Shown here piece after piece: positions 801 to 56,058 of a DNA stretch of 64,000 nt; within the stretch, counting starts at the first letter, position 1; every line of letters starts with the position of its first letter. This DNA is from Candidatus Jettenia caeni. Lineage in GTDB: Bacteria > Planctomycetota > Brocadiia > Brocadiales > Brocadiaceae. The position numbers and the translations under genes are program-made. The stretch covers positions 620,401-684,400 of the forward strand of contig BAFH01000003.1 of the NCBI GenBank assembly GCA_000296795.1, in the 5' to 3' direction. Below the pieces are notes generated by a model. It searched no databases. It saw only the letters and a list, made by a program, of their open reading frames with translations, and was not told the origin of the DNA.

Positions 801-1281
801 GTGCCCAGCGAAGGGTAGTGCTTACTAACGGGTGAAAGACCTGTCATGGTAAAAGCCAGAAGCCATGTAGCCAGGATGGCAGGGGGTGAGGGAAACGTTA
901 CCTTCTGAAGCCCATCGACAAAGGCCGCTCTAAGGCGGGTGAGCAACTCTCCGGGTTGTAACGAATGCGAACGGAGAAGTAGCCTCGTAACAAATGAGAA
1001 CCACTGGCCGAGCCTGTCAATGTGAGGTGAAGGCAAGATTCTTATCCAGGAACTGGCAATAAGGGAGAAGGACAGAGAGAAAGAAGGACGTGAGGAATTT
1101 CTGGAAGAGATAAGGCAGGAACTTCTCCAACGGTGGATAATGCCTTGTTGAGAAGAGAGCAGGAAAGCCGTATGAGGGAAAACCTCACGTACGGTTTGAC
1201 GAGAAGATACTGGAAATAGGGTATGGTTGTGATCATGTGACACTCTCAGAGGAAACGGAGAGAAACGGGGAACACAAACCT
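801..1281 (+). mobile_element. Internally deleted group II intron (ORF-less derivative)
   Basis: This stretch matches the full-length intron at 22135-24100 at both ends. It begins with the same GTGCCC 5' end and the same ribozyme 5' domains (801-1080). It then jumps from about 45 bases of reverse-transcriptase sequence (about 1090-1135, the segment coding EFLEEIRQELLQ) straight to the 3' ribozyme part. Domain V is intact at about 1166-1197 (AGCCGTATGAG, GAAA-type loop, paired 3' arm ending TACGGTTT). Similarity to the full copy ends near 1281. The bases just before the 5' end (AAATTGGC) match those before the full copy (AAATTGGC), consistent with insertion at a similar exon sequence. About 1.3 kb of coding sequence is missing, so it makes no protein. 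Whether it still splices in trans is unknown. The apparent minus-strand reading frames here are shadows. Confidence 0.85.
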
Positions 1282-1342
1282 TTGCAAGGATTTTGAGACA
1301 GCGCAAAAAGTATGACTATTTTTAGTTACAATACAATAATTC

Positions 1343-2314
1343 TTACTTATCAGCCAGTTGTTCAACACCTATCCGGATTTCTCCCCCTACAACTTTGCCA
1401 TTCGGTTCTTTAACAGAAATATTTTGCCTTAATTGAGGAATAAACGAGGTTCCGTTCCTGGTTATTTCTTCTCTCGTATTCTTGTACGTGATCTTCATTA
1501 AGATATGGTATTTTAACTTTGTTCTTTGCTCCGTAGATAAGATGATATCTTCTAAATTGCTCATAACCTTTGATTTGTCCCATAAAAAAACAAAATCCTG
1601 AGAAGAAGAAAATTCTTTATCTAAGGTATCTAAGAGTTCCTCACATTCATCGATAAACTTGGCTTCTTTTAGCAGGGAAGGATCTATAACTATATGTATC
1701 TCATCCCATTCCTCATTGATTACTTTAGATTCAATTTTCAAAGATTGCTTAATCTCATGCGTCTTTAAAAATGTTACTGTATAAGGCTCGAATAGCTCAG
1801 CCTCCGGGCATGAGAAAAGGCTGGTTTTCAACTGTGGTTGTCTGCCATAAAGAAGACCAGCTTCGATTTGGCCAATAGCTTTAGCCTTAAGTTCAAAAAG
1901 ATAACTTTTGTTTCTTTCTATGAGTCTTGCCTGATCGATAAAAAGATATCCGTGTATTAATGGGTCCCGATGTTTAATTCCCAATCTCAATATATAAGAG
2001 CCAGGCAATCCGTTAACCTCCTGTGCCCGGAAAGCTATATACAGCTCATTCCGATCATTCCTGTCTTCTGTGTTTTTGATTTCATCGATACGGATAAATT
2101 GCTCGTCTCCATGCTGTATCAGATCTGTAGCATCCTCCTTAATCCCTTGTTTACGAATACATCTCCAGATTTCATACGTAACGACAAGAGAAGCGTTCTT
2201 CAGGGTAATTTCCTGCTCTTTGAGCTGAGAACTATCGTTTGCTTCAATAGTTACGCAACTACCCAGTACCATAAAACATATTATGATGTAACAATATCTT
2301 GTTCTTACATTCAC
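1343..2314 (-). CDS. Putative lipoprotein of unknown function
   Basis: The 323-residue product starts with a short basic stretch, a hydrophobic core (YIIICFMVLG) and a lipobox-like LGSC, with cysteine at residue 20. This predicts a lipoprotein exported by Sec and processed by signal peptidase II. I do not recognise the mature domain. It looks soluble, mixed alpha/beta, and is rich in charged residues, with no repeated motif or obvious catalytic signature. It lies just downstream of the M20 peptidase gene on the same strand (gap 16 bases), so the two may be co-transcribed. Its 3' end abuts the deleted intron. Confidence 0.6.
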   Translation of the reverse strand: MNVRTRYCYIIICFMVLGSCVTIEANDSSQLKEQEITLKNASLVVTYEIWRCIRKQGIKEDATDLIQHGDEQFIRIDEIKNTEDRNDRNELYIAFRAQEVNGLPGSYILRLGIKHRDPLIHGYLFIDQARLIERNKSYLFELKAKAIGQIEAGLLYGRQPQLKTSLFSCPEAELFEPYTVTFLKTHEIKQSLKIESKVINEEWDEIHIVIDPSLLKEAKFIDECEELLDTLDKEFSSSQDFVFLWDKSKVMSNLEDIILSTEQRTKLKYHILMKITYKNTREEITRNGTSFIPQLRQNISVKEPNGKVVGGEIRIGVEQLADK

Positions 2315-22134: not shown

Positions 22135-24100
22135 GTGCCCAGGGAAGGGTACCGCTTTCTAACGGGTGAAAGTCCCGTCATGGTAAAAGCCGGAGCCATG
22201 TAGCCAGGATGGCAGGGGGCGATGGAAACATTACCTTCTGAAGCCCATTGACAAAGTCGGCGTAAGGCCGGTGAGCGAATATCCGGGTCGTAACGAAAGT
22301 GAACGCAGACGTAGCCTCGTGAAAATTAAGAACCACTGGCCGAGCCTGTCAATTTTAGGCGAAGGCGGAATTCACTAACCTAAACTGGCTAATAGGGAAA
22401 AGAACGGTGGCGGGGTATCAGCGGCGACACGGATAGAAAAGAGCGGTATCAACTGGGGAAGCCCTCCTTGTCCCTGAGAGAAATATCAGGAACGAGGTAA
22501 GCCCTATAAGTCTCACGGCGAAATGGGCTGACAGACAAGAGGGTGGCGGATGAGTCCGTAGTAGCGAGGATGGCAAGGAAGCACAACCTTGCCGGAGCGA
22601 AGGGACACTGCTGTGTCTTAAATCTTTCTACGGAGGTAAAGCAGGGAAGAATGACAAAGGCTTCCCTAAGTCTGCAGGAACTGAGGAGAAAGATATACAG
22701 GAAGGCGAAGGCCGAGAAGCACTGGAGGTTTTGGGGACTGTACTGTCATGTCTGCAAGAAAGAAGTCCTGAGAGAAGCCTATCGATTGGCAAAGGCCAAC
22801 GATGGTGCACCCGGAATCTATGGAAAGAGTTTTGAGGACATCGGGGCAGAGGGGGTTGAGGGATTTCTGGAAGGGATAGGGCAGGAACTCCTTAACCGGA
22901 CTTACCGACCGTTGCCCAACAGGAAGGTCGAAATACCGAAAGGGAATGGAAAGACCCGAATGCTTGGGATACCGACGGTTAAAGACCGGGTAGTGCAGGG
23001 AGCGTTAAAGCTTTTACTTGAACCGATATTTGAAGCGGACTTCAAGGACTGCTCGTATGGCTATCGTCCCAAACGTCATGCACATCAGGCAATCGACAGA
23101 GTGACGAAAGGGATACTGCATGGCCTTACGAGAGTGGTGGATGTAGACCTGAGCGGATACTTCGACACCATAAGGCATCACCTGCTGTTGGAGAAGCTAG
23201 CCCGGCGGGTGCAGGACGATGATATCATGCATCTGGTAAAACTCATCCTTAAGGCAAACGGGAAAAAGGGAGTGCCGCAGGGCGGGATCATATCGCCGCT
23301 GCTGTCAAACCTTTACCTCAACGAAGTGGATGAGATGATGGAGCGGGCACGGGAGGTAACCCGCCGCAATGGATACTACAATCTTGAATATATTCGGAGC
23401 GCAGATGACATGGTCATACTGATACACGGACATCCGAAAGAGAACTGGTTACTCCAGAAAGTTCAGAAGCGACTCAAAGAGGAGCTGGACACATTGCAGG
23501 TACAAATGAACCGGGAGAAGACGAAGGTAGTGAATCTCAAAGAAGGAGGATGTTTCAGTTTCCTGGGGTTTGACTTTAGACTCACCAGAAACCGTGAAGG
23601 CAAGGCCTATGTCAGCAAGACGCCACGGAAGAAGAAACGACAGGAAATCGGTAAGAAGGTAAAGGCTGCGCTTAAGGCAAACTGGAACAAGCCATTCAGA
23701 GAAGTGATACAAACAGTCAATGCAATAGTCAGGGGCTGGGTAAATTACTTCAGGATAGGCAATAGTACTAGTACCTTCAACAAGGTCAGGAATTACCTGG
23801 AGATGAAGGTGCGAAGGTTTGTCATGCGCAGAAAGAAACTGAAAGGCTTTGGCTGGAAGATGTGGAGTAGGGAAGAGATATATGGGAAATGGGGTCTGTT
23901 CAATGACTACCAAATTCGATATGTTCCCCTGAAAGCAAATCCAAGCCGATAGGTGTATATGCCTTGTTGTGAAGAGCACAGGAAAGCCGTATGAGGGAAA
24001 ACCTCACGTACGGTTTGACGAGAAGATGCTGGAAATAGGGTATGGTTGTGATCGTGTGACACTCTCAGAGGAAACGGAGAGAAACGGGGAAGACAAACCT
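22135..24100 (+). mobile_element. Full-length group II intron with reverse transcriptase
   Basis: The 5' end is GTGCCC at 22135. The 5' ribozyme domains run to about 22540 and the reverse transcriptase gene lies at 22651-23952. Domain V is at 23985-24016, with the catalytic AGC triad, the paired arms CCGTATGAG and CTCACGTACGG and a GAAA-type loop. The 3' boundary is uncertain: identity with the deleted copy at 801-1281 ends at about 24100, but the element could extend to about 24156. It is inserted in non-coding DNA just downstream of the response regulator gene at 24193, in convergent orientation. Two further partial copies lie at 801-1281 and 43411-43520. Confidence 0.88.
22651..23952 (+). 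CDS. ltrA: Group II intron reverse transcriptase/maturase
   Basis: The protein has 433 residues from the ATG at 22651, which has GGAGG 12 bases upstream. A GTG at 22543 would add 36 residues that look like ribozyme sequence. The domain order is the RT0-RT7 fingers and palm (IPKGNGKTRMLGIPTVKDRVVQGA, VVDVDLSGYFDTIRH, KKGVPQGGIISPLLSNLYL), then the maturase domain (NAIVRGWVNYFRIGNSTSTFNKVRNYL). There is no HNH endonuclease at the C terminus. The catalytic box, normally Y/F-A-D-D, reads S-A-D-D here (codon AGC at 23398-23400). Loss of that aromatic residue may impair reverse transcription while leaving the splicing function. Confidence 0.92.
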   Translation: MTKASLSLQELRRKIYRKAKAEKHWRFWGLYCHVCKKEVLREAYRLAKANDGAPGIYGKSFEDIGAEGVEGFLEGIGQELLNRTYRPLPNRKVEIPKGNGKTRMLGIPTVKDRVVQGALKLLLEPIFEADFKDCSYGYRPKRHAHQAIDRVTKGILHGLTRVVDVDLSGYFDTIRHHLLLEKLARRVQDDDIMHLVKLILKANGKKGVPQGGIISPLLSNLYLNEVDEMMERAREVTRRNGYYNLEYIRSADDMVILIHGHPKENWLLQKVQKRLKEELDTLQVQMNREKTKVVNLKEGGCFSFLGFDFRLTRNREGKAYVSKTPRKKKRQEIGKKVKAALKANWNKPFREVIQTVNAIVRGWVNYFRIGNSTSTFNKVRNYLEMKVRRFVMRRKKLKGFGWKMWSREEIYGKWGLFNDYQIRYVPLKANPSR

Positions 24101-24192
24101 CAGCCTGTAGCCACTACGCCAGTGTTTTACTCTACAGCCTGCAAGAGGATTTTTTGAAAAACAACCCCATAGGGGTGAAATGTTTATAGAAA

Positions 24193-29972: not shown

Positions 29973-30202
29973 AGGTAACTCCTTTACGTTTGGTTTAGGG
30001 TTTTGATATTTCTTCAGAGTGGCGTGAAATAGCTTAATTCAATGTATAAGAAATTCAATTCTGTAGGGCAAACCTTTAGGTTTGCGCCCTTTGCAAGGCT
30101 AAAGTCTTGTCCTACATTCCTCTGTTTTTTCATGGGTAGGGGCAGGTTTGAAACCTGCCCCTACTGCCGAAACAGCTTAACCCACAGTCACAGGATACAC
30201 AA
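29973..30202. repeat. Composite repeat and palindrome
   Basis: The span 30042-30120 is a copy of the dispersed composite repeat (GAAATTCAATTCTGTAGGGC, AAACCTTTAGGTTT, AAGGCTAAAGTCTTG). It is followed at about 30135-30163 by a near-perfect palindrome with arms GTAGGGGCAGGTTT and AAACCTGCCCCTAC. The same palindrome recurs after the composite repeat at about 33682-33711. Confidence 0.65.
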
Positions 30203-30772
30203 TTATAAAAGCCGATAGGGATATGCCCGCTTTGTCCACTCGCTCTCAGGATACTTGTTTTGGAGTTGTTCGTAAGCATCCTTGAGCCCCTTTGGGTTAT
30301 TCGTGCTTTTGTATAAACACACACCTCTTAAATACATTGATTCCGGCGCCGAACTGCTTTCAGGGAAATCAGATAAAACCTTTTCTAATTTTGAAAGCGC
30401 TTCCTTAAATTCATTCAAATCAAAATGTACCTTTGCTATCCCCAGTAATAATGAAGGAATTAACTCTTCGGGAGAAAGAAAACCTATTGTCCTGTGATGT
30501 TCCTTACCTTCAGTATCAAGGACTATAAGGGTTGGGGTCCATTTCAAGTTAAAATTAGTAGCAAAGGGTTGAGTATCGGAGCGTACACGCAGTGGAATGA
30601 AAGAATTGGTAATGAATTCATTAACTTTTTTCTCAGGATACGAGACCGCATCCATCTGCTGACAGCCGATTCAGCCCGGATTAAAAAAATCGAGTAACAC
30701 CGGCTTTTTCTCAGACCTTGCCCTTGATAGAGCAGCATCCATCTGCGATTCCCATGTAATTTTATTTTCCAT
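30203..30772 (-). CDS. Thioredoxin-like protein with in-frame UGA (candidate selenoprotein)
   Basis: The frame runs from an ATG at 30772 with AGGAG eight bases upstream. It reads through one TGA at 30673-30671 (codon 34) and ends at 30203, giving 189 residues. The segment around the TGA reads LLDFFNPG-U-IGCQQMDAVSYP, so the TGA stands exactly where the first cysteine of a thioredoxin-type CxxC is expected. The second cysteine is C37. Downstream come FIPLRVRSD, TPTLIVLDTEGKEHHRTIG and a TPR-like helical tail (FDLNEFKEALSKLEKVL, SMYLRGVCLYKS). The frame and conservation are uninterrupted on both sides, which argues for selenocysteine rather than decay. A point nonsense mutation of a cysteine codon or a sequence error remains possible. 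No strong SECIS hairpin is obvious; a weak GCA-loop-UGC stem lies about 15-26 bases after the U. It is probably a cytoplasmic redox protein. Confidence 0.7.
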
Positions 30773-31409
30773 AGTAATGCCTCCTTAAATAGTAAAGTTA
30801 TTAATGAATACATCCCACAAGAACCGAATGATCCCTGAAACCATTTGATAAAGTATCTTATCGATTTTCACGAAAGCAACCTTAGAGACTGTCTGAAAAG
30901 ATGCTATGGTGGATTTGCTCCGCTTAATCCACCCTACCGGTAATTTTATAATGAGTAAGGTGAATTAAGGCGCTGTCTTTTGCGCTGAATCCACTATTGA
31001 GAACTATAGGGCAACCCTTTAGGGTGCTATCCCGTGCACATTCAGGTGGGGAGGCAAGGCTAAACAGGCTGTCCGAGAATGCAATTGCCACCTGCAACAT
31101 ATGCTATATGTTGCACCTATTGTAATAGTTAATCAGTATATAGTACAGCTTTGATCCGTAAAAACAATTCTCGGACAGCCTGTTTAGCCTTGCCTTGCAA
31201 TGACCAAGGCGTTTTCAGGTAAGTTATCTCTAGTACACTGTCAATATAATTCATGATAATGGGGCTGTGTCATTGCGAGGGTATTGTCCGAAGCAATCCC
31301 CTGGGCATTTCAAAAGAGATTGCTTCGGGAAAAAACCCCTCGCAATGACAAATACGAGAGAGTCTATTATGATAAATTAAGTTGACAGTGTACTAGTTGG
31401 ATTCCTTAA
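30773..31409. repeat. Non-coding region with nested repeats
   Basis: At 30902-31003 lies a copy of the GGTGGATT/GCGCTG repeat (partner 29228-29329). A composite repeat with GGGCAACCCTTTAGGG follows and is split by the MITE-like element at 31065-31182. The stretch 31265-31365 holds an imperfect palindrome (TCATTGCGAGGG, GATTGCTTCGG, CCCTCGCAATGA). Copies of ACACTGTCAA and its complement lie at 31236-31245 and 31381-31392. No gene was seen. Confidence 0.6.
31065..31182. mobile_element. MITE-like element 1 (118 bp) nested in composite repeat
   Basis: The left end is CAGGCTGTCCGAGAAT (31065-31080) and the right end is the exact complement (31167-31182). The flanks TAAA (31061-31064) and TTTA (31183-31186) extend the perfect complementarity to 28 bp (31053-31080 and 31167-31194). 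The element sits inside the AAGGCTAAA/GCCTTGCC portion of a composite repeat. The interior has no reading frame. A second element of 117 bp is at 33530-33646 and a solitary right end at 5942-5957. Confidence 0.75.
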
Positions 31410-55674: not shown

Positions 55675-56058
55675 GACAATATAAGGTTTGTGGAAAAAAT
55701 GAATTTTTGATATGATAGATGCAAAAGCAATATTTTACGAAGAGAAGATTTGCAAAAAAGAGATGAATTAGGCTCCACCGCAATGCCGTGAGAGGATATC
55801 TTTTGGACCCGTGTTTTATAGTAGGTTACCCCATGATAGCTTTGTACTTTTCTTATAAAGAAGAGTACGCTTACTAGCAAAGACGGGCTACCAAAATGAT
55901 AGTATAGGTCCTTAAAAATAACGCCTCAAAACACGCACATGGCAGAGCCTAAAGAACTTTTGGTATCTTAGCAATTAGGCAATGTTCAGGCAAGGGAAAA
56001 ATATTTGTGTATGGATTTACTTGACAGAATACCTTTTCTGAAGGTAACATAAACCACC
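55675..56058. other. Intergenic region between divergent genes
   Basis: No gene was seen in about 380 bases between the sigma promoter and the gene at 56059. The plus-strand gene has GAAGGTAAC about 13 bases before its ATG. Confidence 0.4.

What the first reader, a model, noticed from the sequence alone, without database searches (positions are those of the whole stretch)
30203..30772. In-frame UGA at the first CxxC cysteine of a thioredoxin-like protein: candidate selenoprotein
The frame from 30772 to 30203 is open except for one TGA at codon 34, exactly where the first cysteine of the motif C-I-G-C would be (NPG-U-IGC). Both sides keep the same frame, a good Shine-Dalgarno sequence is present, and family features continue to a TPR-like tail. 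Random decay would rarely hit just this codon and no other. Automatic gene callers would call only the C-terminal part, starting at 30655. I saw no strong SECIS hairpin, only a weak 3-bp stem about 15 bases after the UGA.
Basis: partly seen in the sequence, partly recalled or inferred. Interest (0 to 1): 0.8.

Follow-up and report, generated by a model that had tools for sequence, protein, structure and literature searches.

The report
Thioredoxin-like selenoprotein of an anammox bacterium
A "stop" codon in the middle of a redox gene of an anammox-type bacterium is almost certainly read as the rare amino acid selenocysteine, because the genome carries the whole selenocysteine machinery, the codon is followed by a conserved RNA hairpin, and dozens of relatives keep the same codon and hairpin; the decoding mechanism is known, but this family of selenoproteins does not appear in the catalogues consulted.

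Summary
In detail: 30772-30203 (minus) is one 189-codon frame with a single TGA at codon 34 (30673-30671), at the first position of a CxxC-type motif in a thioredoxin/TPR protein. The selenoprotein reading is strongly supported. The window's genome (a Candidatus Jettenia-like anammox bacterium) has selA-selB, tRNA-Sec (anticodon TCA) and selD, itself with an in-frame TGA. It carries two paralogues with TGA at the same place. All close homologues in Jettenia, Brocadia, other Planctomycetota and Deltaproteobacteria keep the TGA; related Cys versions occur in genomes without selA. All six pairs form in 56 of 61 TGA sequences, with compensatory changes, and in none of 7 Cys homologues. A covariance model of it found exactly the three genes in this genome, and matches in 58 of 392 planctomycete genomes; 20 of 20 additional sites inspected were UxxC thioredoxin-fold frames. 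Decoding is the known bacterial SelB/SECIS route. The Trx-TPR family has no NCBIfam model over cut-off and I found no open-access report of selenoproteins in anammox bacteria. Sec in the protein remains unproven; substrate unknown.

The parts
30203..30772 (-). Selenoprotein gene, 189 aa, UxxC thioredoxin-like domain plus TPR-like tail, read through one UGA
   Evidence: Thioredoxin_2 (8.6e-12) and TPR_6 (1.5e-9); AlphaFold model mean pLDDT 94.5
30671..30673 (-). In-frame UGA codon 34, predicted selenocysteine, first residue of the UxxC redox motif
   Evidence: TGA at this codon in all close homologues; Cys (TGC) in G061 and G048, which have no selA match
30662..30664 (-). Cys37, resolving cysteine of the UxxC motif
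   Evidence: invariant column C37 in 23-sequence alignment
30636..30653 (-). SECIS hairpin GGAUGC-GGUCUC-GUAUCC, loop starting 23 nt after the UGA
   Evidence: meets the bacterial SECIS model quoted from PMC13188914
30780..30786 (-). Shine-Dalgarno sequence AAGGAGG, 7 nt before the ATG
   Evidence: purine-rich Shine-Dalgarno-like sequence also upstream of the homologues' starts
30458..30772 (-). Thioredoxin-fold domain (residues 1-105), with conserved Trp-Thr-Pro (W78-P80), probably the cis-Pro loop
   Evidence: Foldseek: DsbD C-terminal domain, thioredoxins
30218..30457 (-). Helical TPR-like tail (residues 106-185)

Best explanation
The gene encodes a thioredoxin-fold selenoprotein, probably cytosolic, with a short TPR tail. 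During translation the UGA at codon 34 is decoded by tRNA-Sec delivered by SelB, which binds the hairpin at 30653-30636. The product carries Sec34-Ile-Gly-Cys37; by analogy with CxxC oxidoreductases the selenol attacks substrate disulfides (or peroxides) and Cys37 resolves the selenenyl-sulfide, while the TPR tail likely docks a partner or client. Two exported paralogues in the same genome (with signal-peptide-like N-termini) would do similar work outside the cytoplasm. Shown here: frame, machinery genes, conserved UGA, covarying SECIS, predicted fold. Inferred: Sec in the protein, disulfide-reductase chemistry, role of the TPR tail, location. Not known: substrate and electron donor.
For: Machinery: selA-selB adjacent on C4, tRNA-Sec with anticodon TCA, selD over cut-off with its own in-frame TGA at CGG-U-AGK. 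Paralogues with one TGA at the same site in the same genome. TGA in all close homologues. SECIS: 6 of 6 pairs in 56 of 61 TGA sequences versus 1-3 in 7 Cys homologues; 99.5% of cells paired, covariation score 0.250 with 0 of 500 shuffles as high; position 23 A/G tracks the synonymous Tyr codon TAT/TAC at position 36, 34:1 against 2:20, p=4e-12 uncorrected for phylogeny. The model R1 finds just the three genes in this genome at E<1e-10, next best 0.16. 20 of 20 further sites inspected in other planctomycete genomes were long UxxC Trx-fold frames with phmmer E<=3.4e-9 to this protein. Co-occurrence with selA 31 of 34, Fisher p=1e-6 uncorrected for phylogeny. DsbD-gamma/thioredoxin fold.
Against: No direct evidence of Sec in the protein. 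Three genomes have the TGA gene but no selA match (G007, G028, G047); all are drafts in 230-510 contigs, so gaps are likely. Most stem variation is at two pairs, and the sequences are related. Hairpin energies of the paralogues in the short stretches folded (about -6 to -6.6 kcal/mol) are above the model's -7.5 threshold, though those stretches were cut at the end of the stem. The function is argued from fold only.
Confidence: 0.95

Rival explanations
1. Pseudogene or sequencing error: a Cys codon TGC/TGT decayed or was misread as TGA.
For: Standard gene callers see a stop and an internal start.
Against: TGA at the same codon in dozens of separately assembled genomes and in three paralogues of one genome; no other stop in this frame; purifying selection on both sides; SECIS covariation.
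Confidence: 0.01
2. The real product is the 150-aa protein from the internal ATG at 30655 (or a 33-aa peptide plus it).
For: An in-frame ATG follows the UGA and is kept in many group-1 homologues; it is the ORF called mechanically.
Against: No Shine-Dalgarno before 30655 (the preceding bases are GGCTGTCAGCAG), a perfect one before 30772. The internal ATG falls at the base of the SECIS stem and is absent in several homologues that read CTG/TTG there. The truncated product would lack the first strand, first helices and active site of the thioredoxin fold.
Confidence: 0.03
3. UGA is read as another amino acid (for example Trp or Cys) by a general or local recoding.
For: From general knowledge: a few bacterial lineages reassign UGA, and some Sec systems can insert Cys at Sec UGA.
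Against: tRNA-Sec, SelA, SelB and SelD are all present, the TGA replaces Cys specifically at the catalytic position, and a SECIS follows each time. Cys in place of Sec under selenium limitation is not excluded.
Confidence: 0.01

Closest known systems
Thiol:disulfide interchange protein selenoprotein family (PF13098, UxxC) in Table 1 of the 2026 prokaryotic selenoproteome review (PMC13188914)
   Same: Same Pfam domain (Thioredoxin_2) and same UxxC motif
   Different: The TPR tail, the anammox/planctomycete distribution and the three-paralogue set are not mentioned in the passages read; the listed representative sequence could not be fetched for comparison
NF045694 seleno_TsoB (rhodanese/DsbD fusion-like selenoprotein)
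   Same: Best NCBIfam match; its C-terminal DsbD-like thioredoxin domain aligns to residues 5-107 (5.5e-12)
   Different: 44.6 bits against a cut-off of 805; only the C-terminal 111 of 572 profile positions match
CnoX/YbbN chaperedoxins (Trx + TPR; PDB 3qou)
   Same: Thioredoxin domain followed by TPR helices; second-ranked Foldseek match (3.6e-7)
   Different: Far shorter TPR part here, UxxC instead of SxxC/WCxPC, poor whole-chain superposition (rmsd 12), 16% identity
DsbD C-terminal domain (DsbD-gamma)
   Same: Among the closest thioredoxin-domain sequences and folds
   Different: Soluble stand-alone protein with TPR tail and Sec in place of the first Cys; no DsbD membrane part

Membership tests
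Bacterial selenoproteins (SelB/SECIS-decoded) | In-frame UGA aligned with a catalytic Cys of Cys homologues | tested here: met
   TGA versus TGC in L071/L072 (G061, G048)
Bacterial selenoproteins (SelB/SECIS-decoded) | selA, selB, selC, selD in the genome | tested here: met
Bacterial selenoproteins (SelB/SECIS-decoded) | SECIS: loop of 3-9 nt, stem of 4-16 bp, G in the first two loop positions, 16-37 nt from UGA to loop, MFE of -7.5 kcal/mol or lower | tested here: met
   6-nt loop GGUCUC (4-nt GUCU if G-C closes it), 6-7 bp, 23 nt, -8.6 kcal/mol (criteria from PMC13188914); covariation
Bacterial selenoproteins (SelB/SECIS-decoded) | Selenium/Sec present in the protein | not testable with these tools
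   needs mass spectrometry or 75Se labelling
Thioredoxin-fold oxidoreductases (PF13098/PF13899) | Thioredoxin fold with CxxC-type motif at the start of a helix and a conserved Pro loop | tested here: met
   helix 35-44 follows U34; W78 and P80 invariant in the alignment
seleno_TsoB (NF045694) | Score over curated cut-off across the whole fusion protein | tested here: not met
   44.6 bits versus 805
CnoX/YbbN chaperedoxin | Thioredoxin domain plus full TPR domain with whole-chain similarity | tested here: not met
   Foldseek TMq 0.43, rmsd 12; only five helices after the thioredoxin domain
CnoX/YbbN chaperedoxin | Holdase activity with transfer to GroEL/DnaK | not testable with these tools
   biochemical property (PMC6282202)

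The most novel reading that the evidence does not exclude
A large, uncatalogued family of thioredoxin-fold UxxC selenoproteins, sharing one SECIS type, runs through Planctomycetota (58 of 392 sampled genomes, up to six sites per genome) and has passed to Deltaproteobacteria. In anammox bacteria it forms a selenium-dependent redox set of one cytosolic and two exported members, possibly serving the anammoxosome.
Probability: 0.5. Interest if true: 0.65.

Novelty: new member of a known kind. Interest (0 to 1): 0.5.

Why it matters
Anammox bacteria remove much of the fixed nitrogen from the ocean and wastewater; a selenium requirement would bear on their cultivation and trace-element needs. The gene family is truncated by the mechanical ORF rule (only the part after the UGA is called) and has no curated family model over cut-off, so redox proteins in many planctomycete genomes are probably mis-annotated. 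The SECIS model made here is specific enough to find them.

Tried and rejected
Gene neighbourhood as a clue to function: no conserved neighbours seen among Brocadia, Deltaproteobacteria and the window. Sigma-70 promoter and terminator scan around the gene: not above shuffles. Plasmid transfer: no match in the plasmid collection. Rfam scan of the window: no SECIS family reached its gathering score. CnoX membership considered and rejected on fold length and motif. A general TGA reassignment is not needed given the sel genes. One Pfam call failed on a wrong frame and was repeated with protein letters.

Full report
What is there. The minus-strand frame 30772-30203 encodes 189 residues with a single in-frame TGA at codon 34 (30673-30671) and a TAA stop. 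AAGGAGG lies 7 nt before the ATG. The mechanical ORF list gives only the 150-aa part from 30655. With Cys at 34, Pfam gives Thioredoxin_2 (8.6e-12), Thioredoxin_7 and TPR_6 (1.5e-9). AlphaFold on 23 homologues gives a confident model (mean pLDDT 94.5, pTM 0.90): thioredoxin fold to about residue 105, then helices; the nearest solved folds are a cytochrome-c-biogenesis-related thioredoxin domain, YbbN and the DsbD C-terminal domain (by sequence). Residue 34 sits just before the helix 35-44, where the reactive residue of a CxxC motif belongs.

The genome. The window is G000:C3:620401-684400 of a 4.09-Mb assembly (99.95% complete). The best named match of the gene is Candidatus Jettenia ecosi (93%), then Candidatus Brocadia (82-84%), so the organism is inferred to be an anammox bacterium near Jettenia. 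The genome has selB (389.7 bits, cut-off 242), selA (552 bits, cut-off 268) directly upstream of it, tRNA-Sec (67.8 bits; ARAGORN: SeC, anticodon TCA) and selD (362.7 bits, cut-off 125). SelD has its own in-frame TGA at CGG-U-AGK, the UxxK site of Sec-type SelD (motif in the review table of PMC13188914).

Homologues. The same genome holds two paralogues (37-39% identical), each with a TGA at the same site. Among 98 relatives, all strong matches in the window's own family and several in other families carry one TGA; in the loci read, these TGA codons align with codon 34 of the window gene. Four loci whose records are labelled as Bacillota, Deltaproteobacteria or Proteobacteria MAGs (61-68% identity) also keep it, which suggests horizontal transfer or mis-binning. 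Two homologues of about 30% identity have TGC instead (L071, L072), and their genomes have no selA match. Co-occurrence: of 34 genomes with the TGA gene, 31 have a selA match, and the three others are fragmented drafts; of 64 without it, 26 have selA (Fisher p=1e-6, not corrected for phylogeny). In the window's own family, four genomes rated 99-100% complete (G009, G011, G016, G019) lack both.

The SECIS. [quoted passage not shown] PMC13188914). Over 61 distinct TGA sequences all six pairs form in 56; seven Cys homologues form 1-3, so the hairpin goes with the UGA, though the Cys homologues are also more distant. Position 23 changes A to G (Asp to Gly) together with a synonymous TAT to TAC at position 36 (34:1 versus 2:20; p=4e-12, uncorrected for phylogeny). 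In L067 the neighbouring pair is also exchanged (U-A to A-U). On 33 distinct sequences 99.5% of cells pair, the covariation score is 0.250 (shuffles 0.164, 0 of 500 as high) and sliding the partner destroys pairing. RNAalifold returns the same stem unprompted.

Prediction test. A covariance model of these 41 nt (R1) finds in the window's genome only the three genes (E 4.6e-13, 5.7e-13, 4.4e-11; next 0.16). In 392 planctomycete genomes it hits 58, in 32 of 267 genera, with up to six sites per genome. I read 20 of the sites not used to build the model: all 20 lie in long frames with the UGA in UxxC and have phmmer E between 2e-76 and 3e-9 to this protein. TGA and the TGY of the resolving Cys are part of the model, so the motif is partly built in; the flanking thioredoxin homology is not. 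These proteins vary: some have a TPR-like tail, some an N-terminal extension, some a signal-peptide-like start and a longer tail.

Interpretation. The UGA is decoded as selenocysteine by the ordinary bacterial route (confidence 0.95). The protein most likely works as a thioredoxin-like selenol/thiol oxidoreductase with Sec34 as nucleophile and Cys37 resolving; this follows from the fold and motif, not from an assay. It has no signal peptide by eye, whereas both paralogues have signal-peptide-like N-termini, so one member is probably cytosolic and two exported. Conserved neighbours were not found, so substrate and partner are open.

What is known. UxxC thioredoxin-fold selenoproteins are a known kind, and a PF13098 'thiol:disulfide interchange protein' selenoprotein is listed in the 2026 review. 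No NCBIfam model reaches its cut-off for the window protein, and the models matched by its homologues are the same remote ones. Searches of the open-access library for selenoproteins with anammox, Kuenenia, Brocadia and Planctomycetes/Planctomycetota gave no report of selenoproteins in anammox bacteria; a 2016 paper describes selenoproteins in other Planctomycetes (PMC4807772), and the Scalindua paper mentions selenocysteine only in a reference (PMC3655542). Subscription papers and preprints were not searchable. Hence: a well-supported new selenoprotein of a known kind, in a group where it had not been described in the material searched.

Noticed in passing
L023 (G000:C2:339579-340505, minus): selD of this genome has an in-frame TGA at CGG-U-AGK, so selenophosphate synthetase is itself a likely selenoprotein.
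   Followed up: partly
L018 (G000:C3:1097938-1098477) and L019 (G000:C2:442491-443027): Two paralogous UxxC selenoprotein genes with signal-peptide-like N-termini and the same SECIS type. In some relatives two such genes lie next to each other (L044, L045).
   Followed up: yes
L124-L133 (genomes G214 and G185, family f73, genus g131): A planctomycete genus with five to six UGA-SECIS thioredoxin-like sites per genome, with varied architectures (N-terminal extensions, long tails), an apparent expansion of this selenoprotein type.
   Followed up: partly
L142 (G410:C2:62000-63300): Stem variant GGATAG/CTATCC: the innermost pair C-G is exchanged for G-C, a further compensatory change not in the model's training set.
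   Followed up: no
window 826-1346 and 22160-24135: Two group II introns (D1-D4 and 3' domain matches in Rfam) in one 64-kb window.
   Followed up: no
window 55771-55951 (minus): 6S RNA match, just over the gathering score.
   Followed up: no
window 30773-31409 and 29973-30202: Intergenic stretches around the gene contain palindromic-looking pieces such as GGGGCAGGTTTCAAACCTGCCCC and AACCTAAAGGTTTGCCCTAC; they look like dispersed intergenic repeats.
   Followed up: no
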